Position numbers and translations under genes: made by a program | Source: Allocoleopsis franciscana PCC 7113 | Lineage (GTDB): Bacteria; Cyanobacteriota; Cyanobacteriia; Cyanobacteriales; Coleofasciculaceae | DNA length: 64,000 nucleotides | Reading direction: 5' to 3' | NCBI RefSeq assembly: GCF_000317515.1 | Contig: NC_019738.1 | Span: forward strand, 7,342,001-7,406,000 | Shown: piece after piece, positions 8,672-43,175 of the stretch | Position numbering within the stretch: position 1 is the stretch's first letter | How the letters are laid out: every line of letters begins with the position of its first letter | The notes under the pieces: model-generated | Seen by the model: only the letters and a program-made list of their open reading frames with translations | What the model was told of the DNA's origin: nothing | The model's database searches: none

Positions 8672-8890
8672 ATGGCAACTTTAACCTTAACTCTTCGAGA
8701 GCGCGATTTAATGGCTCTCACGGCAGATGACGTTGCAGAACTAGCTGGACGTTTAGAACGGGATGATTACACCAATGCGTTTGAGGGACTGGACGATTGG
8801 CATTTACTTCGTGCTTTAGCATTTCAACGTCCAGAGTTAATCGAACCCTACCTCTACTTGCTCGATCTAGAAGGGTACGATGAAGCCTGA
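8672..8890 (+). CDS. DUF2555 family protein
   Basis: This small acidic protein is restricted to cyanobacteria and recognised by the run [20 protein letters not shown] and the end [11 protein letters not shown] strong ribosome binding site (GGGAGG) lies 10 bases before the ATG. Its stop codon lies inside the start of coaBC (11-base overlap), which implies translational coupling. Function is not known. The fixed overlap suggests a link with coenzyme A synthesis or simply operon packing. Confidence 0.92.
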
Positions 8891-10142
8891 GCAACTCCCT
8901 AACCAGGGCTGGGAAGGCAGGCGAGTTCTAGTTGGTGTAGGCGGCGGCATCGCCGCCTATAAAGTTTGTCAGGTGATTTCTACCTTATTTAAATCAGGGG
9001 TAGACGTGAGAGTCATTCTCACCCAATCCGCTCAAGAATTTATCACTCCCTTAACCCTAACCACACTTTCGCGCCATCCAGCTTATACAGACTCAGCTTT
9101 TTGGCAACCCACTCACACTCGTCCGTTACATATTGAGTTAGGGGAATGGGCACAGGTGTTTGTGATTGCTCCCCTGACGGCAAATACTGTGGGGAAATTA
9201 GCCCACGGCTTAGCCGATAATTTACTAACGAATACAGTCCTCGCTTCTGGTTGTCCCATACTGTTGGCACCGGCAATGAATACCCAAATGTGGGAACAGC
9301 AGTCGGTGCAACGAAACTGGCAGCAATTGCTGAGGGATTCTCGATATCATCATGTCGGGCCAGATGCAGGATTGTTGGCGTGCGCTAGCGTAGCGGACGT
9401 GAAACGTCATCGCATCGGTTCTGGACGCATGGCAGAACCGGATGAGATCTTGGCATCGGTGCGATCGCTCCTGCATACAAATGGTAAGCGCGATTTAGTC
9501 GGCAAGCGAGTTTTAATCAGCACCGGCGGAACCCAGGAATATCTTGACCCAGTTCGCTTCATTGGCAATCCATCTACAGGTAAGATGGGTCTAGCTTTGG
9601 CACAAGCGGCATTGCACCGAGGAGCCACAGTCACCCTGATTCATGCCCCCATCACCTGGGAGGTACCATCAGGCATTCGCGCCATTGCGGTGGTGAGTGC
9701 AGCCCAGATGGGACAAGCCATGTTGGAATGCTTTCCCGATGCAGATGTGATTGTGATGGCAGCCGCAGTAGCAGATGTCAAGCCGGCTGAATATACCCCG
9801 GAGAAGTTACCAAAAAAATTACTCCCCAATTCCTTACCCTTAGAACCTGTGCCGGATATCTTGGCAGAGTTAGGGCAACGCAAACAGCCGCATCAATGCT
9901 TAATTGGCTTTGCTGCACAAACTGGGGATATTGTCAAGCCTGCCTTGGAGAAATTGCGGAACAAGAAATTAGATGCGATCGCGGCTAACCCGATCGATAA
10001 ACCGAATAGTGGTTTTGGTAGCGATACGAATCAAGCCATATTTCTCGATAAGCAAGGACGGCAGGTAGAAATTGAACCTTGTAGTAAATTACAACTCGCT
10101 CATCATTTGTTTGATTTTGTCGGTAATATTCCACGCGAGTAG
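8880..10142 (+). CDS. coaBC: Bifunctional phosphopantothenoylcysteine decarboxylase / phosphopantothenate-cysteine ligase
   Basis: The protein makes 4'-phosphopantetheine for coenzyme A in two steps. The N-terminal CoaC flavoprotein domain has the FMN-binding GGGIAAYK (21-28), catalytic His84, the PAMNTQMW loop (131-138) and catalytic Cys168. The C-terminal CoaB domain has ISTGGTQE, the [12 protein letters not shown] nucleotide-binding segment and AAAVADVKP. About eight extra residues (around 170-178, ASVADVKR) sit between Cys168 and GRM, where the family normally has only a short loop. The DNA there looks like a GCGCTAGCGTAGCG-type dispersed repeat. The start overlaps the DUF2555 gene. Confidence 0.96.
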
Positions 10143-10238: not shown

Positions 10239-11744
10239 GTGAAGTTGTTCTCAGAGAATGTTTATCAAGTTCCGAATCAGCGTCAAGCCCAGAATTTATC
10301 TGATTCAGGCTTGCCTGTACAAGCAGTAGCTGAAACTAAGGGAAGTTACCCTCGGCGTTCATCTAAGAGAAATCAGCCCCCACCAGGATGTCCTCGAATA
10401 CCCCCCTCGATTAAACTCCGACAGTATCAGCGGCAAGCTGTAGCGAACTGGTTTGGCAATCAGGGGCGAGGCACACTGAAGATGGCGACGGGGAGTGGAA
10501 AGACAATTACAGCCCTTGCGATCGCCACTGAACTGTATGAAAAAATCGGTTTACAAGTCTTACTCGTCGTCTGCCCCTACCGCCATCTCGTTACCCAGTG
10601 GGCGCGAGAATGTGAAAACTTTAACCTACAACCCATCTTAGCCTTCGAGAATCTCCACAACTGGCAAAGTCAACTTTCCACCGCACTTTACAACATTCAA
10701 TCTGGCAACCATTCCTTTGTTACCGTCATTACCACCAATGCCACTTTAATCGGAGAAGGGTTACAATCTCAGCTCAATTATTTCCCTGAAAAAACGTTAA
10801 TTGTCGGCGATGAAGCCCATAACTTAGGTTCACCTCGCTTAGAACAAAGTCTACCTCGCAATATTGGCTTGCGCCTCGCCCTTTCCGCCACCCCAGAACG
10901 GTATTTTGATGAGCAGGGAACGCATTTTTTATTGGATTACTTTGGTAGTGTTTTACAACCCGAACTCACCTTAGCGGATGCCATTCGACAAGGGGCACTT
11001 GTTCACTATCTTTACTATCCCATTTTGGTGGAATTAACCGAATCCGAGACACTTTCCTATGCCAAATTAACCAAACGCATTGGTTGGGCACTGATGGATG
11101 AGGAGGATTTTGAGAGCAATGACACCGTCACATCTTTATTAATGCAACGTGCTCGATTAATTGGAGCAGCGGCGAATAAGTTAGAAGCTTTGCGACAATT
11201 AATGATGGGGCGTCTCGATACGTCTCATACCCTATTTTATTGCGGTGATGGTACGATAGAAGGCTCTCTGAGTCAGGAAAATCAGCATCAAATTGGTGCC
11301 GTCACCCGGTTACTAGGGGCAGAACTTGGCTATCGCATCAATACTTATACTGCCGATACCCCCTTGATAGAACGAGAAGAATTGCGCCGTCAATTTGAAC
11401 AGGGTGAATTGCAAGGTTTAGTAGCCATTCGTTGTTTAGATGAAGGTGTTGATATCCCTGCCATTCAAACCGCTGTAATTCTCGCCAGTAGTGGCAATCC
11501 GCGCCAGTTTATTCAGCGACGGGGGCGGATTTTGCGCCCACATTCAGGCAAGCAACGCGCTACTTTATTCGACATGATTGTTTTACCACCAGACTTGGGG
11601 CGAGAAACCTTGGAAGTGGAACGCAATCTTTTGAAAAAAGAGTTGAAGCGATTTTTAGAATTTGCTGACTTAGCCGATAATGCCGGAGAAGCTAGAATCA
11701 AACTTTTACAGCTACAAAAAAGATACGGGCTGTTGGATATGTAA
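10239..11744 (+). CDS. Superfamily 2 DEAD/DEAH helicase, Dnd-restriction-like
   Basis: The protein has 501 residues with a GTG start. About 60 basic, proline-rich residues precede the Q-region RQYQRQAV. Then come Walker A ATGSGKT (83-89), motif II GDEAHN (about 189-194), motif III LSATPE (about 214), motif V DEGVDIP and motif VI QRRGRILRP (about 424). No nuclease or methylase domain is visible. The layout recalls the ssl2/UvsW-like helicases that accompany DNA phosphorothioation systems, but this is from memory. It heads an operon: 19 bases separate it from the next gene, which in turn overlaps the DndD-like ATPase. Confidence 0.9.
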   Translation: MKLFSENVYQVPNQRQAQNLSDSGLPVQAVAETKGSYPRRSSKRNQPPPGCPRIPPSIKLRQYQRQAVANWFGNQGRGTLKMATGSGKTITALAIATELYEKIGLQVLLVVCPYRHLVTQWARECENFNLQPILAFENLHNWQSQLSTALYNIQSGNHSFVTVITTNATLIGEGLQSQLNYFPEKTLIVGDEAHNLGSPRLEQSLPRNIGLRLALSATPERYFDEQGTHFLLDYFGSVLQPELTLADAIRQGALVHYLYYPILVELTESETLSYAKLTKRIGWALMDEEDFESNDTVTSLLMQRARLIGAAANKLEALRQLMMGRLDTSHTLFYCGDGTIEGSLSQENQHQIGAVTRLLGAELGYRINTYTADTPLIEREELRRQFEQGELQGLVAIRCLDEGVDIPAIQTAVILASSGNPRQFIQRRGRILRPHSGKQRATLFDMIVLPPDLGRETLEVERNLLKKELKRFLEFADLADNAGEARIKLLQLQKRYGLLDM

Positions 11745-11763
11745 AGGAGGGGAAAAATTAGAC

Positions 11764-12012
11764 ATGGTGATGGCATTTAGCTACTCTAACATTCCGGCTA
11801 CCGTTCGACCCATCGTTGTATCGGAAAAGCGTTCTTCTTACAACGCGCCCATTGAATTGGGTGATGTACAGGAGCCGATTCTTAGCGCTCCCCCGGAAGT
11901 TCGACAAATTATTGAGCGGGTGTTACAGGCTGAAAAAGATAAACTCTACATGAAAGTTCCCCGAAACATTAATGACGATATTTTAAAAATAATCAAGGAA
12001 GAAGTACAATGA
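11764..12012 (+). CDS. Small protein between helicase and DndD-like ATPase (82 aa)
   Basis: ATG 11764 is preceded by an excellent ribosome binding site (AAGGAGGGG, 11744-11752). The TGA stop overlaps the ATG of the next gene (ATGA), so translation is coupled. The first half is extended and hydrophobic-polar. The second half is a strongly charged helix (residues after PPEVRQIIERVLQAEKDK). It is not recognisably DndE, which is the small protein of standard Dnd operons. Its position suggests an adaptor between helicase and ATPase. Function unknown. Confidence 0.8.
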   Translation: MVMAFSYSNIPATVRPIVVSEKRSSYNAPIELGDVQEPILSAPPEVRQIIERVLQAEKDKLYMKVPRNINDDILKIIKEEVQ

Positions 12013-14075
12013 AGCTGATATCGATTCGGCTTTGTAACTTTCGTCAATTCTATGGCAAAACTCCAGAAATCGTCTTAGCGAGTGGCGAGCAAAATACGAC
12101 CGTTATTCATGGTAATAATGGTGCGGGGAAAACAACGCTGCTTAATGCTTTTACCTGGGTATTATATGAGAAGTTCAGTGCGGCCTTTGCCTCGGAAGAA
12201 CAATTAGTTAATAAACGAGCGATTGCCGAATCTCCTATGGGGGACGCTGTAGACTGCTGGGTGGAATTGGGGTTTGAACATCAAAATAAACGTTACCAAG
12301 CAAAGCGTCTTTGCCGTGCCTACAAAACGGAACTTGGAGTTGAACAGGGACAAAGCGAATTGTATCTTCAGATAGCTGGCGATGATGGACGCTGGTTATT
12401 GCCGCAACAACTCCCAGAAGATATCATTGGTCGAATTTTGCCTACCAGCTTACATCAATATTTCTTCTTTGATGGTGAACGGATTGAACAAATTGTTCGC
12501 TCGGATAAAAAAGCAGAAATTGCTGAAGCTACAAAGACTTTGCTGGGTGTGGAGGTTTTAAATCGCTCAATCAAACATTTAAAGGAAGCAAAAAAAAGCT
12601 TAGAAGCCGAGTTAGCTTTGATTGGAGATTTTGAAACCCGAAAGCTTTTAAAAGAACAGGAAAAACTTGAGCAAGAAAGCCAGGTAATTTCAAATCGCCA
12701 AAAGGAAATTGAGCAAGAAATAGCACACCAGGATGAACTAAAAAAGACAGTTGGCAATCGTTTATTAGAACTGGGTGGTGCCCAAGAGTTACAGCGTCTT
12801 CGGGATGAACTGGAAGCTAAAGAAAAATTAGTCCGAGAACAGCTTAAACAATCTCAAGAAGCTCAGAAACGAGCGATATCCACACGAGGATATACGGTTT
12901 TGCTCTCAGAGGTAACGGCAGAGTTTCGAGAAATTGTTGATGAATTACGGAAAGCAGGGGAGTTGCCTGTTGGGATTAAACGGCAATTTGTTAGCGATTT
13001 ACTCCACGAACAACGCTGTATTTGTGGCACAGAATTGATCGAGGGAACTTCCACTCATCAGCATGTATCTGCTTGGATGGATAAGGCAGGAATGGCTGAT
13101 GTGGAAGAAACGGCAATCCGCATGAGTGCACAGGTGGAGGAAATCGACAAGCAAGTGCCTGAATTTTGGGAAAATGTGGATCGGCAACAAGCTAATATTG
13201 CTCAGGGAAGAGCCGATCTTTCTCAAATCGAGACGCAGTTGGATGATATTAATAAAAAGCTGCGGACTTATCCCAATGAGGATATTCAACAGTTACAAAA
13301 ACGATTGGATGAAACGGAAGAAAAGATTCGGGATTTGACCTTAGAAAAAGGAGCCAATCAGCAGAAAATAGAAAGCTTGAAGGCCGAAATAGATCGACAG
13401 ACGAAGCAAATTACCAAGCACAAGATGAATGAGGCAAAGCAAGCTTTAGCGCAACGACGAATTGCCACAACTCAGGAGGCGATTGAACGCTTAACCGAAG
13501 TGCGATCGCGTTTAGAAAATCAGTTCCGCTCTTCTTTAGAAAAGCGAGTTCAAGAAATATTTACTTCCATTTCTTTCACGCCTTATATCCCTAAATTAAG
13601 TGAAAAATATGAATTGATGCTGGTTGACCCTACAGGAGGACAAGAAACAATTGTTGCCGCCTCTACAGGGGAGAACCAAATTCTTAGCTTATCGTTTATT
13701 GGCGGTATTATTGACCGAGTACGGGAATGGATTCAAGAAAATACTTTGATGGGTCTAGATAGTAGTACGTTTCCCATGGTTATGGATTCTCCTTTCGGAA
13801 GTTTGGATGAAATTTACCGCCGACAAATTGCCAAAAAACTTCCTCAATTAGCCAATCAGCTCGTGGTTTTAGTGACTAAGACGCAATGGCGGGGAGAAGT
13901 GGAACAAGAGATGGCTCATCGCCTCGGTCGAGAATATGTTTTGACTTATAATTCTCCTAAACTTGATTGCGAAGAAGATGCGATTGAGTTAGGGGGAATT
14001 CCCTATCTTTTGGTGAAACGCAGTTCCAGTGAGTTTGAATATACAGAAATTGTCGAAGTGGATTATAGTTTTTAA
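12009..14075 (+). CDS. DndD-like / Rad50-SMC-type ATPase
   Basis: The 688-residue protein has split ABC ATPase halves around a long coiled coil. Walker A GNNGAGKTT lies at 35-43 after an LCNFRQFYG strand, as in DndD and SbcC. Heptad-rich helices run from about 180 to 530, with a CIC motif at 337-339 near the hinge, reminiscent of the zinc hook. The ABC signature region is STGENQILSLSF (about 552), and Walker B with D-loop is MVMDSPFGSLDE (about 588-600). In DndD this ATPase supports DNA phosphorothioation. Here no dndB, dndC or dndE is adjacent, so the biochemical role is open. Confidence 0.88.
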   Translation: MKLISIRLCNFRQFYGKTPEIVLASGEQNTTVIHGNNGAGKTTLLNAFTWVLYEKFSAAFASEEQLVNKRAIAESPMGDAVDCWVELGFEHQNKRYQAKRLCRAYKTELGVEQGQSELYLQIAGDDGRWLLPQQLPEDIIGRILPTSLHQYFFFDGERIEQIVRSDKKAEIAEATKTLLGVEVLNRSIKHLKEAKKSLEAELALIGDFETRKLLKEQEKLEQESQVISNRQKEIEQEIAHQDELKKTVGNRLLELGGAQELQRLRDELEAKEKLVREQLKQSQEAQKRAISTRGYTVLLSEVTAEFREIVDELRKAGELPVGIKRQFVSDLLHEQRCICGTELIEGTSTHQHVSAWMDKAGMADVEETAIRMSAQVEEIDKQVPEFWENVDRQQANIAQGRADLSQIETQLDDINKKLRTYPNEDIQQLQKRLDETEEKIRDLTLEKGANQQKIESLKAEIDRQTKQITKHKMNEAKQALAQRRIATTQEAIERLTEVRSRLENQFRSSLEKRVQEIFTSISFTPYIPKLSEKYELMLVDPTGGQETIVAASTGENQILSLSFIGGIIDRVREWIQENTLMGLDSSTFPMVMDSPFGSLDEIYRRQIAKKLPQLANQLVVLVTKTQWRGEVEQEMAHRLGREYVLTYNSPKLDCEEDAIELGGIPYLLVKRSSSEFEYTEIVEVDYSF

Positions 14076-14258: not shown

Positions 14259-15017
14259 TTACAGCAAGATTTCCCGGCTAGAAAAAGCGTTAATCAATCG
14301 GCTTAATTTGGCATGATCGCCATTAGACCCTTGCAAGCCAGCAGACTGTAAATATCCATCAATTAATTTAGCTTGAGTTAGTGTCGCTGATACCTGCTCA
14401 GCACCTTTGAGGTTAGCACCCTTGAGATTGGCACCACTCAGGTTGGCTGCCAATAAACTGGTTGGATAACATAAATTGGCACCCAACAAATTAGCATAAC
14501 TGAAGTCAGCGCCTAATAAATTGGCATAACTTAAGTCTGCCCCCATTAAGTTAGCTCCGAATAAGTTAGCGCCCAGCAAGTCAGCATAGCTTAAGTCCGC
14601 CCCTAGTAGGTTAGCCCCAAACAGATTAGCCCCCAGCAGGTTAGCGTAACTGAGGTTAGCTGTACTGAGAGTTGCATCGCTTAGGTTGGCATACCTCAGG
14701 CTGACACTCAACAGATTGGCATCGCTCAGATTGGCATCAGTTAGGTTAGCGCCACTCAAATCAGCCGCGCTTAAGTCTGCACTGCCTAAGTCTGTATTCA
14801 ACAAGTCAGCCGAGCTTAAGTCCGTACCAAATAGATTAGCACCGGATAGATTCGCACCACTTAAGTCCGCCGCACATAAGTCGGCACCACTCAAATCAGC
14901 CCCACTCAGGTTGACACCTAGCAACGTGGTGTTGCATAGATCGGCACCAGGCAAGTGAGCATTACGAAAATCTCGTTCTCCGGCTTGATAACGCGACTGG
15001 AATTCTGATGTATCCAT
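14259..15017 (-). CDS. Pentapeptide-repeat protein
   Basis: The N-terminus MDTSEFQSRYQAGERDF is followed by about 35 A(N/D)LXX-type repeats (for example LLGANLFGANLLGADLSYA) and a short non-repetitive C-terminal tail (about 40 residues). There is no signal peptide or membrane segment. It is a paralogue of the protein at 3052-4119, sharing the GER(D/N)F lead-in. The gene converges on the helicase/DndD-like operon and shares the 184-base spacer with it. Some pentapeptide proteins act on DNA topoisomerases, but no specific role can be assigned. Confidence 0.93.
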   Translation of the reverse strand: MDTSEFQSRYQAGERDFRNAHLPGADLCNTTLLGVNLSGADLSGADLCAADLSGANLSGANLFGTDLSSADLLNTDLGSADLSAADLSGANLTDANLSDANLLSVSLRYANLSDATLSTANLSYANLLGANLFGANLLGADLSYADLLGANLFGANLMGADLSYANLLGADFSYANLLGANLCYPTSLLAANLSGANLKGANLKGAEQVSATLTQAKLIDGYLQSAGLQGSNGDHAKLSRLINAFSSREILL

Positions 15018-26104: not shown

Positions 26105-29100
26105 TCACTCAACAAAAATAACCCCTGCGGCTAATTGAACCTGATCCAGACTGATATCTCGGCGCTGCGCGATCGCTCTCAACTTAATGTCTAACTCTCG
26201 ATTCACCTTATTCAGTAATCCTTCTGTTGCCGGAATCATCTGAAGTTTGCTCTCAAAACGGAACCGCTCAATGCGTTCCTTCAATTCTGACTGTCTGCGG
26301 TTGGCATAGTCCTCAGCACTCCGTTGCTGCACATCACAGCGATTCTTATTTTCAACCTCAAAATCTTCTGCTGCTCGGTTAAATGCATCTTCTAGGTACT
26401 CATCACAGTCATTGTAAGCCGCTAAGATTCGCTCCATGTCACCGAGTAAGTTGACGGCATTCGGCTTAGGTTTGCCTTTACGTGCTGTCAAACTGACTAA
26501 GGATTCAGACCGTTCATCAGAGAGCATCCTCCCATCGGCACATCGAGCAACTTTAGAAGCAATTTGGTTTTCAGTTCTTAGTCCTGTAAATGACCAACGG
26601 TGTATAACGTAGACGTATAGTCCGGTTGCGATATCAATGTTGTGATGTTGGATGTCCCGACTCTCCAACTGACACGCAGAAACCTCATGAAACTTGGGTG
26701 CTGCTGTTTCGTAGCGATATCTTATCCATTGAATGAGAGGATGGGTTGGGTCTAGTAACTCGTTCCGCTTACCCATTGTGCCTGCTACTTTGGGGTTAAA
26801 GAAACAGGTAACAGAGGTACTAGACGCGTGAAGGCGAGTTGGCGTTGAACACTGATGCTTGCTCAAAAACATCTGTAATTCAACTTTGGCATCTTCTGCC
26901 AATCTGATATTAAAGACCTGTGGTTTGTTCGGAACTGATTCAATGGTTGTGCCAGGATGATAACGAGCGAAGTAATCCTCAACAAATGAGTGCAGTTCTT
27001 CTGGATGAAGCCACCTGCCTTGGTCGCGGCTTTTTGTAATTTCACCCAGAATGCGATCGGAGAAAGCTAGTAGATTAATCGCTTCGGTTTCAAGCCGATC
27101 TTGTTCAGCTCTCTGCTTGATGATTGCCATTGCCGTTTCTTCAGCACGACGAATGCGATCGGTGACACTTAGATTTGGCTCAAATAGCTCGATAAGTAGC
27201 TGCTCTGTCATTTCACCGAGTATATTTTCCAGGTCGCCAATACTCTCTGTAAATACATTAATTCGCTCATAAAGTCTTTCCAAAATCCGTTCTTCAACCG
27301 TGTCTACTAGACTGAAGTTGACGATAGAAATCCTCTCAGCTTTTTGTCCCAAGCGGTCTAGGCGTCCGATGCGTTGTTCAACCCGCATTGGATTCCAAGG
27401 TAAGTCGTAGTTAATCAAAAATCGACAAAATTGGAGGTCAATCCCTTCACTGCCAACTTCAGAAGAAAGCAGAACCGAAGCAGTTCCTGTCTCAAATTCA
27501 TTTAAGACAGCCTGTTTATCGTCCATGTTGCCAAGAATCATGCAGGTACTAATTTTGTCTACCTCCAGTCGCCGTTGGAGGTAATGGAGGGTACCTCGAA
27601 AATAAGCAAAGAGAACAAATTTTTCTGTAGGATTTTTCTTGAGTTCCTGGCGGATAAATTCAACAAGTTTTTTGTACTTTGTGTCTTCCTTCTCTAATTG
27701 AGCGTAATTAAGTTTACCTTCAGGAAACAGCAAAGCTGGGATATCCCAATCAGGTTTTTCCTCAGAATCAGTACTGAGTTGAGCAGATACTCCAAAATCT
27801 TCCCAAAAAAGCTCATCCTCTTGAATAAATTCATTAAGAATGCCTTTCTGCGACCAAGCTTGAAGGGCAGCAACCATACAGCTTGCCATCTGTCGCTGAC
27901 GAGTGATTATTCTGAAAAGGGAAATTCCTTTTTGCCCTTGTGTTTGTTTCCTGATTTGACAAGTGACGTAATCGTAAATTTGCCTTTCTAGAGGAGAAAA
28001 GTGAACCACTAACGTCTGAGGTGCGCGTTCTACACGATTGGAAATGACATCACGCTTTCGATTCCTGGTAATATATTGACCGATTAATGATAAGTTTTCC
28101 AACTTATAACCTAAACGCACTCGCGCTTCGTTATCAATTTTCTCAGGTGCGGCTAAATCTTTTTTTATCTGATGTAACGTAGGGTTCTTGAAAAAATATT
28201 CAGATTGAAGTGCCTTATCTACTTCTCGCTGGGTTCCTGCAAAATCGGGTGGATTTCGCCAAGTAAGTCGCAATGCCCTGACAATTGGAGCATTAGCCTC
28301 TAGCATTTCTTGAAAGATAGACTCATTAAAAAAGTCCTCTGGGCTGATTAGCCTAAGTAATTGATACAGATTGGAGTTGTGAATTTGAATAGGAGTGGCT
28401 GTGAGTAAAAGAAGATGCCGAGATGCATCTCGCATTAATCGTCCAATGCGGTGATTGGCTGTCGCTGGATTGCGAAGATAATGTGCTTCATCAATAATGG
28501 TTAAGTCAAAGATGCCCAACTCGTCAGTTGCCGTGTTTTTATCCAAAAGTCTTGCTAGTTCTGCCCTTGCTCCTTTCACATTTTCATCTTCCCAATTAGC
28601 GCTAGGACGTAAACCTTCTAAGCTGACAATACAAGTGAAAGAATTTTGAGAACGAGTTTCTAATAAACCTCGTATTTTTTGCAAAAGTCCTTGAGCATTA
28701 GTAATTTCAGCACTAATATTGAAGCCGTTCAGGAGTTCTTTCTGCCATTTTGCACACAAAATGGAAGGACAAATAATCAACAATCGACGAGCATCTGCTC
28801 TTGCTTGAAGCTCTTTCCAGACATACATAGCTTCAATGGTTTTACCTAAGCCAACTTCATCAGCAATTAATAATCGACCGACTGGAGATTCAATAAATTT
28901 TAAGACGGGCTTAAATTGGTGAGGATAGAAGTCTGTATTACTCGACTCCATGCTGTAAAAAATGTTGGTTAAGTGCCCTCTCAGTTTCTCAAATGTAATA
29001 ATTTTTCTCAAATCATTTGAACCGCTAAACCGTCCTTGTTTTAGTAAGTCGGGAATACCCTCTGGTTCTCCACAAAGTTCCAGTAAGTTGTAAGGCTTAT

Positions 29101-29257
29101 AGGATTTTTCATTAGGACTAAACTGAACTTGCACTAAGAGTTGACTTCCAGATTGCCGATTTTTTCCAGTTGTCATACCTCGCTGACCAGGGTTAGCTTT
29201 CAGGCGAACTTCCTGCCCTGCAATATTCGGATTCCAATCTTTGGTTTCTTTATCCAT
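26105..29257 (-). CDS. SNF2/RapA-type DEAH helicase
   Basis: This is a 1050-residue protein. Counted from ATG 29257, an N-terminal region of about 115 residues precedes Walker A DEVGLGKT (133-140), motif II DEAH (256-259), motif III TATP (286-289), the second RecA domain (VLFAYFRG, about 548), SSEVGSEGIDLQ, NYDLPWNP and motif VI RIGRLDRLGQ (629-638). About 400 C-terminal residues are mainly helical and of unknown function, with no nuclease motif seen. It resembles RapA/HepA and the DrmD-like helicases of phage-defence loci. TTG 29278 is an alternative start. The gene follows the Hsp70-like gene by 81 bases on the same strand. Confidence 0.9.
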   Translation of the reverse strand: MDKETKDWNPNIAGQEVRLKANPGQRGMTTGKNRQSGSQLLVQVQFSPNEKSYKPYNLLELCGEPEGIPDLLKQGRFSGSNDLRKIITFEKLRGHLTNIFYSMESSNTDFYPHQFKPVLKFIESPVGRLLIADEVGLGKTIEAMYVWKELQARADARRLLIICPSILCAKWQKELLNGFNISAEITNAQGLLQKIRGLLETRSQNSFTCIVSLEGLRPSANWEDENVKGARAELARLLDKNTATDELGIFDLTIIDEAHYLRNPATANHRIGRLMRDASRHLLLLTATPIQIHNSNLYQLLRLISPEDFFNESIFQEMLEANAPIVRALRLTWRNPPDFAGTQREVDKALQSEYFFKNPTLHQIKKDLAAPEKIDNEARVRLGYKLENLSLIGQYITRNRKRDVISNRVERAPQTLVVHFSPLERQIYDYVTCQIRKQTQGQKGISLFRIITRQRQMASCMVAALQAWSQKGILNEFIQEDELFWEDFGVSAQLSTDSEEKPDWDIPALLFPEGKLNYAQLEKEDTKYKKLVEFIRQELKKNPTEKFVLFAYFRGTLHYLQRRLEVDKISTCMILGNMDDKQAVLNEFETGTASVLLSSEVGSEGIDLQFCRFLINYDLPWNPMRVEQRIGRLDRLGQKAERISIVNFSLVDTVEERILERLYERINVFTESIGDLENILGEMTEQLLIELFEPNLSVTDRIRRAEETAMAIIKQRAEQDRLETEAINLLAFSDRILGEITKSRDQGRWLHPEELHSFVEDYFARYHPGTTIESVPNKPQVFNIRLAEDAKVELQMFLSKHQCSTPTRLHASSTSVTCFFNPKVAGTMGKRNELLDPTHPLIQWIRYRYETAAPKFHEVSACQLESRDIQHHNIDIATGLYVYVIHRWSFTGLRTENQIASKVARCADGRMLSDERSESLVSLTARKGKPKPNAVNLLGDMERILAAYNDCDEYLEDAFNRAAEDFEVENKNRCDVQQRSAEDYANRRQSELKERIERFRFESKLQMIPATEGLLNKVNRELDIKLRAIAQRRDISLDQVQLAAGVIFVE

Positions 29258-29338
29258 ACCATGTTTATTCCTGACCAAACTGCTCTATTGCTTGAGCTTT
29301 ATTGGAAATATATTCTTTTTAATATATCCTACTCTTGT

Positions 29339-31687
29339 TCAACAAGAATCTTTCGTATCTTCGTAACGAAGAGGCTTTGAGCTAATAGTAGCTTTTAGAG
29401 TCTGTGGTTCAGCTTTGTCCATCTCACTGGGTAGCCTGATTTCTGGACAATCTCCTTCTGGGATAGATAATCCGTAAGCCACAGAAAACCGATGAAACTC
29501 TTGAGAACTCAAGCCATTCATAGCAAGGTCTTTGGGAATCGGAATAGCTTTTTGGACATAGGAGGGAATCCCAGCCTTTTTGTGCTGAAATAGAGAATGG
29601 GTAGCCAAAATTGTTGTTTTATAAAAGCTAGTTAAGCTGCCGCCGCCACCGATTAAAATGCTCAATCCATCTTCAAAAACTGAATCCTTGAATACTGGAC
29701 GGTGAATACCATGTTTCTGACGACCTTCCATGACAACTCTCCCGACTAGCTGCTGAATTTGTTTTCGGGATTGAGTAGAGTTGAATTGAGTTAAGTTTGA
29801 ATTTGATGCTTGCAAGATGTCGCGTCTTACTTGGTCTTCTGAAATATTGAGTTCACTAGCTAAACATTGTGAGATGGCGCTAACACCCAGTGGCTTCACT
29901 GATGCTGAGTAAAAATCAACTTTAGGTTCACCTTGGTCTCGCCAATAGCGAAACGATACACCATCGAGAGTGCCACAACCCACATCAAAGAAGGTATAAA
30001 AACCGTCGTCAAACTCGCGGGAATTTAAGCAAGACCAGACTTCTGCTGAAATTTCAGGAATGGCATGACAATCAATTGGGTTGTCAGCAATACGCGATCG
30101 CAGTTGGTTGAGGTGCTCACCTAAACTCTCCAAGGTAAACAGTTCAGTCTTTGGCTCATTGCTCAACAACCATGCCAGAGACAAGACTTTTTTAAAACGG
30201 GCGATCGCAGGTGAATCACAGTATTCAACAGGTACACCGACATTGGCAGACCATTCAATCTTTTGATTCTTAACTAGATCGGGTTTGTTACACCGAATCC
30301 AAGATTGAGCGCGTGTAATGACACAACTTAAGTAGTAAGCGCAAAGGTTTTCCACTGTTTCAGGTCGATCCAGCTCCGGTAACCGATCAAGCCTCCAGCG
30401 ATCGCTCTCTTGCGAGATATCCAGATCAGCCAAGCGCATTTTAATATACTTAATTGGTGTTTTAATCCGTTGCTCGATAGCTGCCCATTCTGCCTTTGTC
30501 AGTCCTGATCGCAATGTCCCGTCTGCCAAAATTGCGATTTGGGTTGGCACAAGTGCTTCATCCAGATTGGCTTGTCCATCGGTAAAAGTAACCACTTCAG
30601 AAAAGTCTCGCCCAATATCACGGAAGCAAACTTTGGTAAAACTGGTACCAAAATCAATACCTAGGTTGATATAGAGCAGCTCAAGTTCTACTACTGGGAC
30701 TTCTGGTTCAGAGGGTCTACGCCTAATAAGAGCCTGTAATTCGTTTTGCAGTTGTGCAAGTTCTGCTTGTAGGTTATTTTGCTGCTGCTGCAAGTCACTC
30801 CGCCACTGTTCCAAGCCAGCCTGTACTTGAAGAATCTCCTCTTGGAGACTATTCACCCATCCTGTTGAGGGGAAACTCTCTAAGCGCTGGTCAAAGCTGG
30901 CGGTTGATTCTCGCAAGTTGTCATACTGACCTTGCAGCTGAGTAATCGTTTGAAAAACAGACCTGAAATTGAGAGACTCTATTGAAGCAATCCGGCTGTG
31001 TAGATCAGCGAGTTCTTGTTGGACGATTTGAAGCGCTGCTGTGTCTAGGGTAGGTTCTTGAGATTGAAGCTGTTGACGAAGGGTAGAAACGCTTGCTTGC
31101 AGTTGGGAAAAACTTTGCTCGAACTGAGCTTGGAGCTGATAAAGATTTTGAGGGACTAATTCTAAATTGAGAGACTCAAAAGTCGTAATGCGTTCTTGTA
31201 GCCTAGAGAGTCCTTGCTGGATGTCTTGAAGCGTTGCAGGATTAACAACAGTCGCTTGAGACTGAACAAACTGACGAATGGCTTGAATCTCACTGGAGAT
31301 ATTAGCACTCAGTTGTGAAAGCCTCACCTCAAACCGAGCGATCGCATCTGGGAGATTGACCGATGCTTGTTGGGATGAAGTTAATTGGTAATCAAGCGTT
31401 TGAATTTGTTGATTGAGTGAGTTCCTTACTTCCTGTTGTAAACGAGAAAAGTCCTGATTCAGTTGTGAGAGTTGCCGCTCAACTTGAGCCGCCGTGGCTG
31501 TAAGGCTCTGCTGCATTTGCTGCTCAAACCGTTGCCGATTGAGCAGATTGAGAAAGATAGAGAGCGATAAAGGAGCAGCAGCATAGACCACTTGTCTTGA
31601 AGCAGTTGAAATGACTACTCCAGCGACAGAAGCTGCAAGGGAGGTATACTCAGCAACCTTCAGGAAGCGCAATCCATTCGACTGCAT
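29339..31687 (-). CDS. Membrane-anchored coiled-coil Hsp70/actin-like ATPase
   Basis: Of 782 residues, 11-50 hold two short hydrophobic stretches (VAEYTSLAASVAGVVIS, YAAAPLSLSIFLNLL), probably a membrane hairpin. Residues 55-325 are a glutamine-rich coiled coil containing two related units (151-207 and 217-270, each with ESLN). The C-terminal part is an Hsp70/actin ATPase: phosphate-1 LGIDFGTSFTKV (342-353), phosphate-2 FDVGCGTLDG (567-576) and adenosine motif ILIGGGGS (677-684). A substrate-binding Hsp70 C-domain is absent, so it is not DnaK. It is first in a two-gene operon with the helicase. I infer a sensor or regulator role for that helicase. Confidence 0.85.
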   Translation of the reverse strand: MQSNGLRFLKVAEYTSLAASVAGVVISTASRQVVYAAAPLSLSIFLNLLNRQRFEQQMQQSLTATAAQVERQLSQLNQDFSRLQQEVRNSLNQQIQTLDYQLTSSQQASVNLPDAIARFEVRLSQLSANISSEIQAIRQFVQSQATVVNPATLQDIQQGLSRLQERITTFESLNLELVPQNLYQLQAQFEQSFSQLQASVSTLRQQLQSQEPTLDTAALQIVQQELADLHSRIASIESLNFRSVFQTITQLQGQYDNLRESTASFDQRLESFPSTGWVNSLQEEILQVQAGLEQWRSDLQQQQNNLQAELAQLQNELQALIRRRPSEPEVPVVELELLYINLGIDFGTSFTKVCFRDIGRDFSEVVTFTDGQANLDEALVPTQIAILADGTLRSGLTKAEWAAIEQRIKTPIKYIKMRLADLDISQESDRWRLDRLPELDRPETVENLCAYYLSCVITRAQSWIRCNKPDLVKNQKIEWSANVGVPVEYCDSPAIARFKKVLSLAWLLSNEPKTELFTLESLGEHLNQLRSRIADNPIDCHAIPEISAEVWSCLNSREFDDGFYTFFDVGCGTLDGVSFRYWRDQGEPKVDFYSASVKPLGVSAISQCLASELNISEDQVRRDILQASNSNLTQFNSTQSRKQIQQLVGRVVMEGRQKHGIHRPVFKDSVFEDGLSILIGGGGSLTSFYKTTILATHSLFQHKKAGIPSYVQKAIPIPKDLAMNGLSSQEFHRFSVAYGLSIPEGDCPEIRLPSEMDKAEPQTLKATISSKPLRYEDTKDSC

Positions 31688-40618: not shown

Positions 40619-41221
40619 CTAATCATTGATGGCGTTCAGCAAGACTTCTGATAAAGATAGATCAGCCATGTCATCCATCGTAATGGCGTCACAAATATCA
40701 AATTTGGCTCCGACCCCTTGCAACTGATCGTCTAACGCCTTGAGAAACTGAGTTGCAGTTGGGTCATTACCCACTTGAATCATCGAAATTCCTAGTTCTT
40801 CATCTCGTTCCATCTGCCGAGAGGCTTCAACAATCGCGACCATCACACCTTTGCGGTCATCCGGTTCCCCATCGGTTATCACCAATATGGTTTCTCCACC
40901 AGGCTTGGTTTGTCCAGCCGCTTTATGTTGAAAGTAGCGATCGGTCGCATCTTTGAGTACAGCCGCCAGATTGGTGGTACCCGCCGGGTCATTTTCTTGA
41001 AAAATTTGTGCCACCTTACTAGAGGTGACATTGTCGTAGCGTTTAAAGCGACTGGAAAACAGGTAAACCGTAATTCCATCCGGATCGAATTGTTCACACT
41101 TTCTCGCCAACGCTAAGGTAGATTCCTGTGCTGCCTCCCAGCGACTTCGTCCACCCGCTTGGTCGGGAGTGGACATACTGCCGCTCTTGTCAATGATTAG
41201 GGTGTAATCACGGTCTTGCAC
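40619..41221 (-). CDS. VWA domain protein (third paralogue)
   Basis: The product is 200 residues and is essentially a single von Willebrand factor type A domain. The metal-binding MIDAS motif is complete (DKSGSMS at residues 9-15, the Thr in GTTNLAAVL, the Asp in VITDGEPDD). The start is GTG 41221 with AGGAGA about 10 bases upstream, giving MQDRDYTLIID. It is nearly identical over most of its length to the two genes at 41246 and 42457 (by eye about 80-85%). No signal peptide. VWA proteins commonly pair with MoxR AAA ATPases or bind partners via metal, but no MoxR gene is present here. Confidence 0.92.
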   Translation of the reverse strand: MQDRDYTLIIDKSGSMSTPDQAGGRSRWEAAQESTLALARKCEQFDPDGITVYLFSSRFKRYDNVTSSKVAQIFQENDPAGTTNLAAVLKDATDRYFQHKAAGQTKPGGETILVITDGEPDDRKGVMVAIVEASRQMERDEELGISMIQVGNDPTATQFLKALDDQLQGVGAKFDICDAITMDDMADLSLSEVLLNAIND

Positions 41222-41245
41222 AATCTAAAGTCTCCTGCGAATAAC

Positions 41246-41848
41246 TTAATCGTTGATGGCGTTCAGCAACACTTCCGCCAAAGACATATTCTCCATGTCA
41301 TCCAGCGTCACTGTATCTACAATGTCGAACTGTGCCCCAGCACCTTGCAGTTCATCGTCTAGTGCTTTGAGGAAACGAGTGGCAGTGGCATCGCTACCCA
41401 CTTGAATCAGCGAAATCCCCAGTTCTTCATCTCGTTCCATGTGCCGTGATGCCTCAATGATGACTCGCATCACCGCTTTACGGTCATCCGGTTCCCCATC
41501 AGTGATGACTAAAATTGTTTCTCCGTTCGGCTTCGTTGCACCAGATGCCTTGCGTTGAAAGTAATTATCAGTAGCATCCTTCAGCACGCTGGCAAGGTCA
41601 GTGGTACCCATCGGGTCGTTTTCCATAAAAATCTGAGCGACTTTGTTAGCCGTCACATTTTCGTAACGCTTAAAGCGACCGGAAAACAGGTAAACGGTAA
41701 TTCCATCTGGATCGAATTGTTCACATTTTCTAGCCAGTGCCAAGGTCGATTCTTGGGCAATGTCCCAACGGCTTCTTCCACCCGCTTGATCCGGGGTAGA
41801 CATGCTACCGCTCTTATCAATGATTAATGTATAGTCACGGTCTTCCAC
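41246..41848 (-). CDS. VWA domain protein (second paralogue)
   Basis: The product is 200 residues, one VWA domain with full MIDAS (DKSGSMS, Thr in GTTDLASVL, Asp in TDGEPDD). I chose GTG 41848. The ATG 15 bases upstream (41863) lies in the GGAGGT ribosome binding site, and a GTG start gives the same length and MEDRDYTLIID opening as the other copies. The gene is 24 bases upstream of the third paralogue, so the two are likely translated from one message. Confidence 0.92.
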   Translation of the reverse strand: MEDRDYTLIIDKSGSMSTPDQAGGRSRWDIAQESTLALARKCEQFDPDGITVYLFSGRFKRYENVTANKVAQIFMENDPMGTTDLASVLKDATDNYFQRKASGATKPNGETILVITDGEPDDRKAVMRVIIEASRHMERDEELGISLIQVGSDATATRFLKALDDELQGAGAQFDIVDTVTLDDMENMSLAEVLLNAIND

Positions 41849-41930
41849 AATAGAACCTCCCATAGTGAGAATTTACCTCCCGTGATGGTCACAGTTTCCT
41901 CTCTAAGCCTATACGACTCCCGGATGAATT

Positions 41931-42416
41931 TTACCCATGAGTTTCTCGTAAGGCCGTCAAATAATCAATTGCGGCATCTAACTTAGAAGGATAAGAATAA
42001 GAAAACTCTTCAAACCACAAACCTTCTTCCGAGCGAGAATTTAGTTTTTTTAACCATTCCGTTGCTTCTTGAGTCAGTGCCTCTCGTTTCCTTTTGCGCC
42101 TCTGCTCTTCCTTGATTTGTTCTTCTCTCAGTTGTTGTTCTTTTTGAAGCTGTTCTTCTCTTAGTTGTTGCTGCTTTTTAAGTTCCTCTGCTTGCTCTTT
42201 TTCCTCAAACTCAGCCCGAACATCAGCTAATAAATTTTCCTCAGCTAAACTGAGAAAATTGCTCTGAATAGATTGGGAGTGATAAGTCGGAGAAACAGGT
42301 GGTGGAGATTGAAAGTCTTCTTCCTTAAAAAGAGGCTCTTTTTGGGGTTTTAATCCTAGCTCTTTTTCTTGATACTCCGCTTTGACTTGAGCTAATAAGT
42401 CATCGATTGATTCCAT
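41931..42416 (-). CDS. Coiled-coil protein within the VWA cluster
   Basis: This 161-residue protein has two copies of a LLA(Q/D)V(K/R)AE(Y/F)(Q/E)EKE unit (near residues 7-21 and 60-74). A charged helix full of REEQLQKEQQ heptads spans about 80-115. The C-terminal portion (WLKKLNSRSEEGLWFEEFSYSYPS) looks like a small folded region. I do not recognise the family. Its place between two VWA paralogues suggests it is a partner, perhaps a ligand that bridges MIDAS sites. This is inference from position only. Confidence 0.75.
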   Translation of the reverse strand: MESIDDLLAQVKAEYQEKELGLKPQKEPLFKEEDFQSPPPVSPTYHSQSIQSNFLSLAEENLLADVRAEFEEKEQAEELKKQQQLREEQLQKEQQLREEQIKEEQRRKRKREALTQEATEWLKKLNSRSEEGLWFEEFSYSYPSKLDAAIDYLTALRETHG

Positions 42417-42456
42417 GAGTTTGACCCTCAGCTAAAACACTTGTAATTGTGCCTAC

Positions 42457-43062
42457 CTAGTCTGTAATGGCATTGAGTAAAACTTCTGTTAAGGTCATGT
42501 CTTCCATGTCCTCCATAGTCACTGTGTCCACAATGTCAAACTTGGCACCAGCGCTTTGGAGTTCGTCATCTAATATTTTGAGAAATTTGGTAGCTTGGGC
42601 ATCGGTGCCAACTTGAATGAAGGAAATGGCTAATTCTTCATCCCGTTCCATCCGCCTGGATGCTTCTATAATGACCTTCATGACAGCTTTGCGGTCATCG
42701 GGTTCACCATCGGTAACAACTAGGATTGTCTCTCCGTTTGGCTTAGTCTGACCAGCGGCCTTGCGTTGGAAGTAATTACTGGTAGCATCTTGTAACACGC
42801 TCGCTAAGTCAGTACGACCTGAGGGTTCATTTTCTTTAAAGACTTGGGTAACTTTGTTCGCGGTTACATTGTCGTAGCGTTTGAAGCGACCGGAAAACAA
42901 GTACACCGTGATCCCGTCTGGGTCAAATTCTTCGCATTTACTGGCTAAGGCGAGGCTAGACTCTTGCATGGTTTCCCAGCGGCTTTTATTACCCAACTGG
43001 TCACGAGTCGCCATGCTGCCGCTTTTGTCGATGATTAATGTATAGTCGCGCTGCTCTAGCAT
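42457..43062 (-). CDS. VWA domain protein (first paralogue)
   Basis: The product is 201 residues, a single VWA domain with MIDAS motif DKSGSMA, Thr in GRTDLASVL and Asp in VTDGEPDD. ATG 43062 (MLEQRDYTLIID) is chosen because GGGGGAGA is about 6 bases upstream. An upstream TTG would overlap that site. It is the most upstream of three tandem copies and carries a slightly different set of changes (for example NKSRWETMQ instead of GGRSRW), so it may be the parental copy. The cluster's promoter should lie between it and ndhN. Confidence 0.92.
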   Translation of the reverse strand: MLEQRDYTLIIDKSGSMATRDQLGNKSRWETMQESSLALASKCEEFDPDGITVYLFSGRFKRYDNVTANKVTQVFKENEPSGRTDLASVLQDATSNYFQRKAAGQTKPNGETILVVTDGEPDDRKAVMKVIIEASRRMERDEELAISFIQVGTDAQATKFLKILDDELQSAGAKFDIVDTVTMEDMEDMTLTEVLLNAITD

Positions 43063-43175
43063 GAAAATCTCCCCCAATCTGCTCAGTATGTTTTAAGGGT
43101 ATCAAAACCCGTAATCTGAGCTACAAGTTGAGGGAGGATTAAAGTCGTTGGGCTTGGGATATATTGGCGTTTGAG

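What the first reader, a model, noticed from the sequence alone, without database searches (positions are those of the whole stretch)
10239..14075. Three-gene operon: SF2 helicase, small protein, DndD/Rad50-like ATPase
Seen: complete helicase motifs, an 82-residue protein with an excellent ribosome binding site, then a coiled-coil ABC ATPase whose start overlaps the small gene (ATGA). Known: helicase plus DndD-type ATPase occur in DNA phosphorothioation (Dnd) loci, and helicase plus SMC-like ATPase sets occur in several defence systems. Here dndB, dndC and dndE are absent and the small protein does not look like DndE. Inference: an independent DNA-targeting or anti-phage module, or a reduced relative of Dnd restriction.
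Basis: partly seen in the sequence, partly recalled or inferred. Interest (0 to 1): 0.85.

Follow-up and report, generated by a model that had tools for sequence, protein, structure and literature searches.

The report
Nuclease-less DNA-sulfur (Pbe) defence module
These three cyanobacterial genes are part of a known system that blocks invading DNA lacking the cell's own sulfur mark, but here its presumed DNA-cutting domain has been lost, and nearly a whole order of cyanobacteria keeps this cutter-free version as an inherited chromosomal gene set, which suggests that it works without cutting DNA.

Summary
In detail: helicase (10239-11744), 82-aa protein (11764-12012) and coiled-coil ATPase (12009-14075) form one tight operon. 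They are pbeA-pbeB-pbeC of the phosphorothioate-linked Pbe ("CxC ATPase") module, not an independent new system. The missing partners are in the same genome at three other places: dndB-HNH-dndC-dndD, dndE, and pbeD. What is unusual: PbeA has lost the N-terminal phospholipase-D (HKD) nuclease domain that 76 of 80 PbeA loci sampled mostly outside the order carry. Every intact copy of this PbeA lineage in the host's order is nuclease-less (89 copies). 87 of 105 sampled genomes of the order carry pbeA, pbeC, pbeD and dndC together, 9 carry none intact. PbeA evolves like a housekeeping gene (distance correlation with neighbouring ArgF 0.85, dN/dS 0.05-0.13), with one PLD loss before the order diversified and at least two separate losses in Bacillota. 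Most likely it senses unmarked DNA and blocks it without cutting, as reported for archaeal PbeABCD. A chromosome-maintenance role is not excluded. This bears on two published claims: that cyanobacteria lack phosphorothioate restriction partners, and that Pbe must act by cleavage. New variant of a known kind.

The parts
10239..11744 (+). pbeA, nuclease-less: XPB-like SF2 helicase/translocase (501 aa); lacks the ~230-aa N-terminal PLD/HKD nuclease domain of canonical PbeA
   Evidence: TIGR04095 668.7 bits (cut-off 600); PADLOC PbeA PDLC02704 540 bits, residues 29-485 on profile 224-681 of 682; alignment to PLD-bearing PbeA; nearest solved structures RAD25/XPB
11743..11752 (+). ribosome-binding site of pbeB (AAAGGAGGGG)
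   Evidence: sequence
11764..12012 (+). pbeB: 82-aa adaptor-like protein with a conserved ~50-aa C-terminal core (EPI..APPEVRQIIERV..EK.KL....INDDILKIIKE.V)
   Evidence: no Pfam/NCBIfam/PADLOC family; same place and core in cyanobacteria and Bacillota; AF2 predicts helices 33-40, 44-63, 69-81 at mean pLDDT 65
12009..14075 (+). pbeC: CxC-type coiled-coil ABC ATPase (688 aa), sister of DndD; start overlaps the pbeB stop (ATGA)
   Evidence: PADLOC PbeC PDLC02753 1128 bits over 647 residues; DndD model TIGR03185 only 168.3 bits, below its cut-off 245.85; CxC in 66 of 66 relatives
8880..10142 (+). upstream neighbour (coaBC/dfp-like by its sequence, not family-searched), not part of the system
   Evidence: in relatives pbeA has other neighbours, often lexA-argF
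14259..15017 (-). downstream neighbour: pentapeptide-repeat protein, convergent, not part of the system; pbeD is not here

Best explanation
The operon encodes PbeA-PbeB-PbeC of a split phosphorothioate-exclusion (DndBCDE + PbeABCD) system whose other genes lie elsewhere on the same chromosome. DndBCDE put sulfur marks on host DNA. PbeC, a Rad50/DndD-like ATPase, with PbeD, the DndE counterpart, scans or clamps DNA and distinguishes marked from unmarked DNA. PbeB couples PbeC to PbeA. PbeA, an XPB-like translocase that has lost its nuclease domain, is loaded on unmarked DNA and blocks its replication or expression without cutting it. Shown here: gene identities, completeness in trans, loss of the nuclease domain, intact ATPase motifs, coordinated retention, vertical inheritance and purifying selection. 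From the literature (archaeal system): need for pbeB, pbeC and pbeD, dependence on phosphorothioation, block of viral DNA replication without cleavage. Inferred: the division of labour between the subunits and that the cyanobacterial version acts the same way.
For: Identity. Partners in the same genome: dndC, dndB/dndD/HNH, dndE beside the Dnd-associated methyltransferase TIGR04096, pbeD = TIGR04062. Co-occurrence over 386 genomes of the phylum: pbeA with dndC 90 both, 8 pbeA only, 4 dndC only, 284 neither; within the order 87 of 105 genomes have pbeA, pbeC, pbeD and dndC, 9 have none intact. Linkage: in 29 genomes pbeA lies within 15 kb of dndC, and in G062 (same family) pbeABC-pbeD-HNH-dndC is one cluster. 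Nuclease loss: 89 of 89 intact order copies are 450-538 aa, with no PLD remnant within 2 kb upstream; the short clade nests inside PLD-bearing cyanobacterial PbeA. Function kept: DExH and QxxGR motifs in 98 of 98 PbeA, dN/dS 0.05-0.13 for PbeA and 0.06-0.18 for PbeC. Non-cleaving mode: PMC6459918.
Against: No activity has been measured for any cyanobacterial Pbe. In archaea PbeA still carries its PLD domain, so the absence of cleavage there does not prove that the domain is idle. An HNH enzyme related to phosphorothioate-dependent nucleases sits between dndB and dndC in this genome and could supply cleavage. Near-fixation in an order is unusual for a phage-defence system and could mean a different primary role.
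Confidence: 0.6

Rival explanations
1. Core chromosome function: in this order the Dnd/Pbe set is mainly a genome-maintenance or epigenetic device (for example control of replication or repair at unmarked, newly made or damaged DNA), and exclusion of foreign DNA is secondary.
For: Single-copy, chromosomal, near-fixed in the order (92 of 105 genomes); distances track ArgF (Mantel r 0.85, 0 of 500 permutations) and PbeC (0.93), dN/dS like ArgF and LexA; families mostly cluster together in the tree; the only cyanobacterial plasmid hit listed is a PLD-bearing relative outside the order. Jian et al. propose an antioxidant or epigenetic origin of cyanobacterial Dnd (PMC8569181).
Against: The module as a whole was lost in at least five genera (g7, g16, g32, g33, g54) without obvious harm; homologues act in virus exclusion; no housekeeping phenotype is known.
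Confidence: 0.2
2. Cleavage outsourced: the nuclease role moved to a separate protein, here the HNH enzyme between dndB and dndC, and PbeABC only locate and hold unmarked DNA for it.
For: The HNH protein resembles NF045808 phosphorothioated-DNA-binding restriction endonuclease (102.9 bits, under the cut-off 180) and is linked to dndC/pbeD in about 27 of 80 genomes.
Against: About two thirds of the genomes with the nuclease-less module have no linked HNH. In 48 of 80 genomes no PLD relative was found anywhere; where one was found it is mostly a different, larger PLD-helicase.
Confidence: 0.12
3. An independent new defence system, or a chance arrangement of three genes.
For: No dnd genes inside the 64-kb window (by inspection); the small protein matches no family.
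Against: Curated Pbe/Dnd models match, the partner genes are in the genome, and the trio recurs.
Confidence: 0.02
4. A decaying remnant of a PbeABCD system on its way out.
For: PLD domain lost, genes scattered over four places, pbeD detached.
Against: Intact motifs and frames in nearly all genomes, dN/dS 0.05-0.18 for PbeA and PbeC, coordinated retention across an order. True decay is visible only in rare cases: pseudogenes in G385 and a pbeD fragment in G268.
Confidence: 0.05

Closest known systems
DndCDEA-PbeABCD (Xiong et al. 2019, PMC6459918)
   Same: Helicase, small protein, coiled-coil ATPase in the same order; pbeD and the phosphorothioation genes in the same genome
   Different: PbeA lacks the PLD domain; pbeD and dnd genes are not in the operon; dndB present; vertical core inheritance instead of horizontal transfer
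CxC ABC-ATPase-DndE systems (Rakesh et al. 2024, PMC10853773)
   Same: CxC hook in the ATPase, small protein, SF2 helicase, DndE-like partner
   Different: No HKD nuclease; the small protein has a conserved core across phyla rather than being mostly disordered and rapidly evolving
NCBIfam TIGR04095 (dnd_restrict_1) and TIGR04062 (dnd_assoc_4)
   Same: PbeA and the genome's pbeD are above the curated cut-offs
   Different: The models name the proteins but do not record the absence of a nuclease domain; 'restriction enzyme' in the name is not supported by any nuclease motif here
DndD / canonical DndBCDE
   Same: PbeC is a sister of DndD; the genome also has a true DndD (693 bits)
   Different: PbeC fails the DndD cut-off (168.3 against 245.85)
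DndFGH
   Same: Also a partner of phosphorothioate marking
   Different: No DndF, DndG or DndH among the best matches of the three proteins; genome-wide search for DndFGH not made

Membership tests
PbeABCD / CxC-ATPase system | PbeC: DndD-like ABC ATPase with CxC hook | tested here: met
   PDLC02753 1128 bits; CxC in 66 of 66
PbeABCD / CxC-ATPase system | PbeA SF2 helicase part | tested here: met
   TIGR04095 668.7 bits, PbeA profile 224-681
PbeABCD / CxC-ATPase system | PbeA N-terminal PLD/HKD nuclease domain | tested here: not met
   Absent from the protein and from 2 kb upstream; the only PLD relative in this genome is a 1086-aa ORF on contig C5
PbeABCD / CxC-ATPase system | PbeB small protein between A and C | tested here: met
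   Position, ATGA overlap and conserved core
PbeABCD / CxC-ATPase system | PbeD (DndE counterpart) present | tested here: met
   In trans at G000:C1:1860808-1861263, TIGR04062 194.8 bits
PbeABCD / CxC-ATPase system | Four genes in one operon | tested here: not met
   pbeD is about 2 Mb away round the chromosome if contig C1 is circular, 5.5 Mb along the contig
PbeABCD / CxC-ATPase system | Phosphorothioate-dependent exclusion of unmarked DNA | not testable with these tools
   Needs an experiment; modification genes are present
Canonical Dnd modification (DndBCDE) | The ATPase is DndD | tested here: not met
   168.3 bits, cut-off 245.85; the genome's DndD is another gene
Canonical Dnd modification (DndBCDE) | The small protein is DndE | tested here: not met
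   No family match; DndE is elsewhere
Vertically inherited core gene set | Single copy, near-fixed in the order, distances track a housekeeping gene | tested here: met
   92 of 105, Mantel r 0.85, tree
Vertically inherited core gene set | Loss harms growth | not testable with these tools
   Nine genomes of the order lack the set intact, so it is not essential in all lineages

The most novel reading that the evidence does not exclude
Nearly an entire order of cyanobacteria carries, as vertically inherited core genes, a phosphorothioate-sensing machine made of a Rad50-like clamp and a nuclease-free XPB-like translocase that excludes or silences unmarked DNA without cutting it, and the same domain loss arose independently in Bacillota; cleavage is then dispensable for Pbe immunity.
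Probability: 0.45. Interest if true: 0.75.

Novelty: new variant of a known kind. Interest (0 to 1): 0.55.

Why it matters
There is an open dispute about how Pbe works: Xiong et al. saw no cleavage of viral DNA, while Rakesh et al. argued from the fused HKD nuclease that cleavage must occur. A natural lineage in which that nuclease is gone while helicase, ATPase, small protein and pbeD stay under strong purifying selection makes the question directly testable. It also contradicts the statement that phosphorothioate restriction partners are absent from cyanobacteria (PMC8569181), on which an antioxidant origin of Dnd was built, and weakens the idea that the 'type III restriction enzyme' next to cyanobacterial dnd genes destroys foreign DNA or kills the cell (PMC8546630).

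Tried and rejected
1) Independent system without Dnd: rejected, dnd genes found elsewhere in the genome. 2) Reduced system without pbeD: my own first reading, rejected when pbeD turned up at 1.86 Mb. 3) PLD domain split off as its own gene: upstream tblastn found nothing; the genome's only PLD relative is a 1086-aa ORF on another contig. 4) HNH as universal replacement nuclease: rejected, linked in only about a third of genomes. 5) Fold search with the PbeB model (mean pLDDT 65) gave no match with E under 0.001. 6) PbeC has no PDB relative at E 1e-4 by sequence. 7) RNA families, inverted repeats and promoter/terminator scans around the operon gave nothing above background or nothing usable. 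8) The Pseudanabaena plasmid pbeA annotated as 476 aa is not a further loss: a PLD region lies upstream of, and in frame with, the annotated start.
Full report
OBSERVATION. The three reading frames are at the stated coordinates: helicase 10239-11744 (GTG start, 501 aa), small gene ATG 11764 to stop 12012 (82 aa) behind AAAGGAGGGG, ATPase 12009-14075 (688 aa) with an ATGA overlap. Upstream is a coaBC-like gene (by its sequence), downstream a convergent pentapeptide-repeat gene.

IDENTITY. The helicase passes the curated model TIGR04095 'DNA phosphorothioation system restriction enzyme' (668.7 bits, cut-off 600) and matches PADLOC PbeA over profile positions 224-681 of 682 only. The ATPase matches PADLOC PbeC end to end (1128 bits) and fails the DndD equivalog (168.3 against 245.85); it carries the CxC hook that Rakesh et al. 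(PMC10853773) use to define the clade. The small protein matches no library but is PbeB by position. So the trio is pbeA-pbeB-pbeC.

THE PARTNERS ARE IN THE GENOME. The window is G000:C1:7342001-7406000 of a 7.97-Mb genome. dndC is at C1:1100949-1102277 (692.8 bits); beside it are dndB (443.7 bits), an HNH protein and dndD (693.1 bits). dndE is at C1:1078072-1078383 (135.4 bits), next to the Dnd-associated methyltransferase TIGR04096 (751.9 bits). pbeD, which in cyanobacteria is TIGR04062 'DNA phosphorothioation-associated protein 4', is at C1:1860808-1861263 (194.8 bits). In the related genome G062 the same genes form one cluster, pbeABC-pbeD-HNH-dndC; here they have been dispersed.

DISTRIBUTION. 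Over 386 genomes of the phylum, pbeA was found in 98, pbeC in 94, pbeD in 96 and dndC in 94, nearly all in the host's order. pbeA and dndC: 90 both, 8 pbeA only, 4 dndC only, 284 neither (Fisher p 8e-73; genomes are not independent, so this is descriptive). Reading the four lists together, of 105 genomes of the order 87 have pbeA, pbeC, pbeD and dndC, 9 have none intact (in five genera; one keeps a pbeD fragment full of stops), 9 are partial or broken. In 29 genomes pbeA and dndC lie within 15 kb. pbeB sits directly upstream of pbeC even where pbeA is elsewhere; in family f2 it stays with pbeA instead.

THE NUCLEASE DOMAIN IS GONE. Canonical PbeA is PLD/HKD nuclease plus SF2 helicase (PMC6459918; PMC10853773). 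All 89 intact copies of this PbeA lineage in the order are 450-538 aa; the nine PLD-bearing PbeA in the sampled loci have the HxK motif (HEKxxx), and tblastn finds no PLD remnant in 2 kb upstream of any short copy. The residue alignment shows the window protein beginning at the linker to the helicase. A genome-wide search with the PLD domain in 80 genomes found it in a few second, divergent PbeA copies, in PLD-bearing PbeA outside the order and, mostly, in other larger PLD-helicases; 48 of 80 had no match. Helicase motifs are intact: DExH and QxxGR in 98 of 98, Walker A in 95.

ORIGIN OF THE LOSS. In the tree of phylum sequences the short proteins are separated from the PLD-bearing ones by one change. 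In a tree with 79 loci from a collection-wide scan, the short cyanobacterial clade (SH-aLRT 97) nests in a PLD-bearing cyanobacterial clade (100), so the PLD domain was lost on the way to this order. 76 of the 80 scanned loci have a fused PLD; the four without are two Nostocales and two Bacillota (Exiguobacterium sp. s124, Salipaludibacillus daqingensis). The last two have compact pbeA-pbeB-pbeC-pbeD operons, and Salipaludibacillus groups with PLD-bearing Bacillaceae (99), so the loss happened at least three times. The scan ranked loci against a full-length query, which favours PLD-bearing hits; the fraction without PLD outside cyanobacteria is therefore a lower bound.

INHERITANCE AND SELECTION. 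Pairwise PbeA identity tracks ArgF, the neighbour in many genomes (41 genomes, Mantel r 0.85, 0 of 500 permutations), and PbeC (r 0.93). dN/dS is 0.05-0.13 for PbeA and 0.06-0.18 for PbeC, against 0.02-0.15 for ArgF; PbeB is faster (mostly 0.15-0.26). Rows of one family mostly fall together in the PbeA tree. In 72,556 plasmids the best relative is 75% identical, on a Pseudanabaena plasmid, and its PLD region is present; no other cyanobacterial plasmid is listed. This is core-genome behaviour, unlike the mobile behaviour reported for Pbe in general (PMC6459918).

PbeB. Its last ~50 residues are conserved from cyanobacteria to Bacillota, with invariant I, E, L and K positions, and a small ORF abuts pbeC in 65 of 74 loci from the wide scan. 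AlphaFold2 gives three helices in the C-terminal half at modest confidence (mean pLDDT 65) and no structural match. It looks like a small helical adaptor more than a disordered peptide.

MECHANISM. Established for the archaeal relative: pbeB, pbeC and pbeD are required, pbeA partly; protection needs phosphorothioation; marked virus escapes; viral DNA is not replicated but not cut. Rakesh et al. objected that the fused nuclease implies cutting. The present lineage has no such nuclease in PbeA, so I infer: PbeC/PbeD scan or clamp DNA, PbeB links them to PbeA, and PbeA, whose nearest solved relatives are XPB/RAD25 translocases, blocks unmarked DNA by translocation or remodelling. The HNH protein near dndC (NF045808-like but under the cut-off) is an optional extra, linked in about a third of genomes.

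LITERATURE. Jian et al. (PMC8569181) showed vertical inheritance of Dnd in Cyanobacteriales and stated that phosphorothioate restriction components are absent there, after checking DndFGH; the present survey shows that Pbe partners are almost always present. A Microcoleus study (PMC8546630) noted the 'type III restriction enzyme' beside dnd and assumed that it destroys DNA. In the open-access library searched I found no description of a nuclease-less Pbe; subscription papers and preprints were not searchable.

LIMITS. Some genomes are drafts, so single absences are unsafe. Trees are quick searches. No function was tested.

Noticed in passing
window 26105-29278 (-) and 29339-31687 (-): A DrmD-like SNF2 helicase (PADLOC PDLC02623, 994 bits) next to a 782-aa coiled-coil protein whose C-terminal half looks Hsp70/actin-like; no other DISARM gene was obvious in the ORF list. 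Possibly a second, unusual defence-like pair.
   Followed up: partly
window 40619-43077 (-): Three near-identical VWA/TerF-like proteins in tandem with a small coiled-coil protein between two of them.
   Followed up: partly
L148:6992-10877 (G197): Between pbeD and dndC lies a second, divergent PLD-bearing pbeA followed by a broken pbeC and a DndE-like ORF, beside the genome's nuclease-less pbeABC elsewhere.
   Followed up: partly
L098, L100, L101, L102 (family f2): pbeB is N-terminally extended (112 aa; ORF of 173 aa in L102) and stays with pbeA while pbeC has moved away.
   Followed up: partly
L004:98-1558 and cluster 6 loci: A second DGQHR-domain protein (DndB-like, 27.6 bits to PADLOC DndB) lies divergently beside dndC in many genomes of the order; function unknown.
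   Followed up: no
L037-L136, upstream of pbeA: In about 40 genomes pbeA directly follows argF and lexA in the same orientation; whether it is in the LexA regulon was not examined.
   Followed up: no
L241 and L242: Exiguobacterium and Salipaludibacillus have compact nuclease-less pbeABCD operons; in L242 DndD- and DndE-like genes lie divergently beside pbeA.
   Followed up: partly
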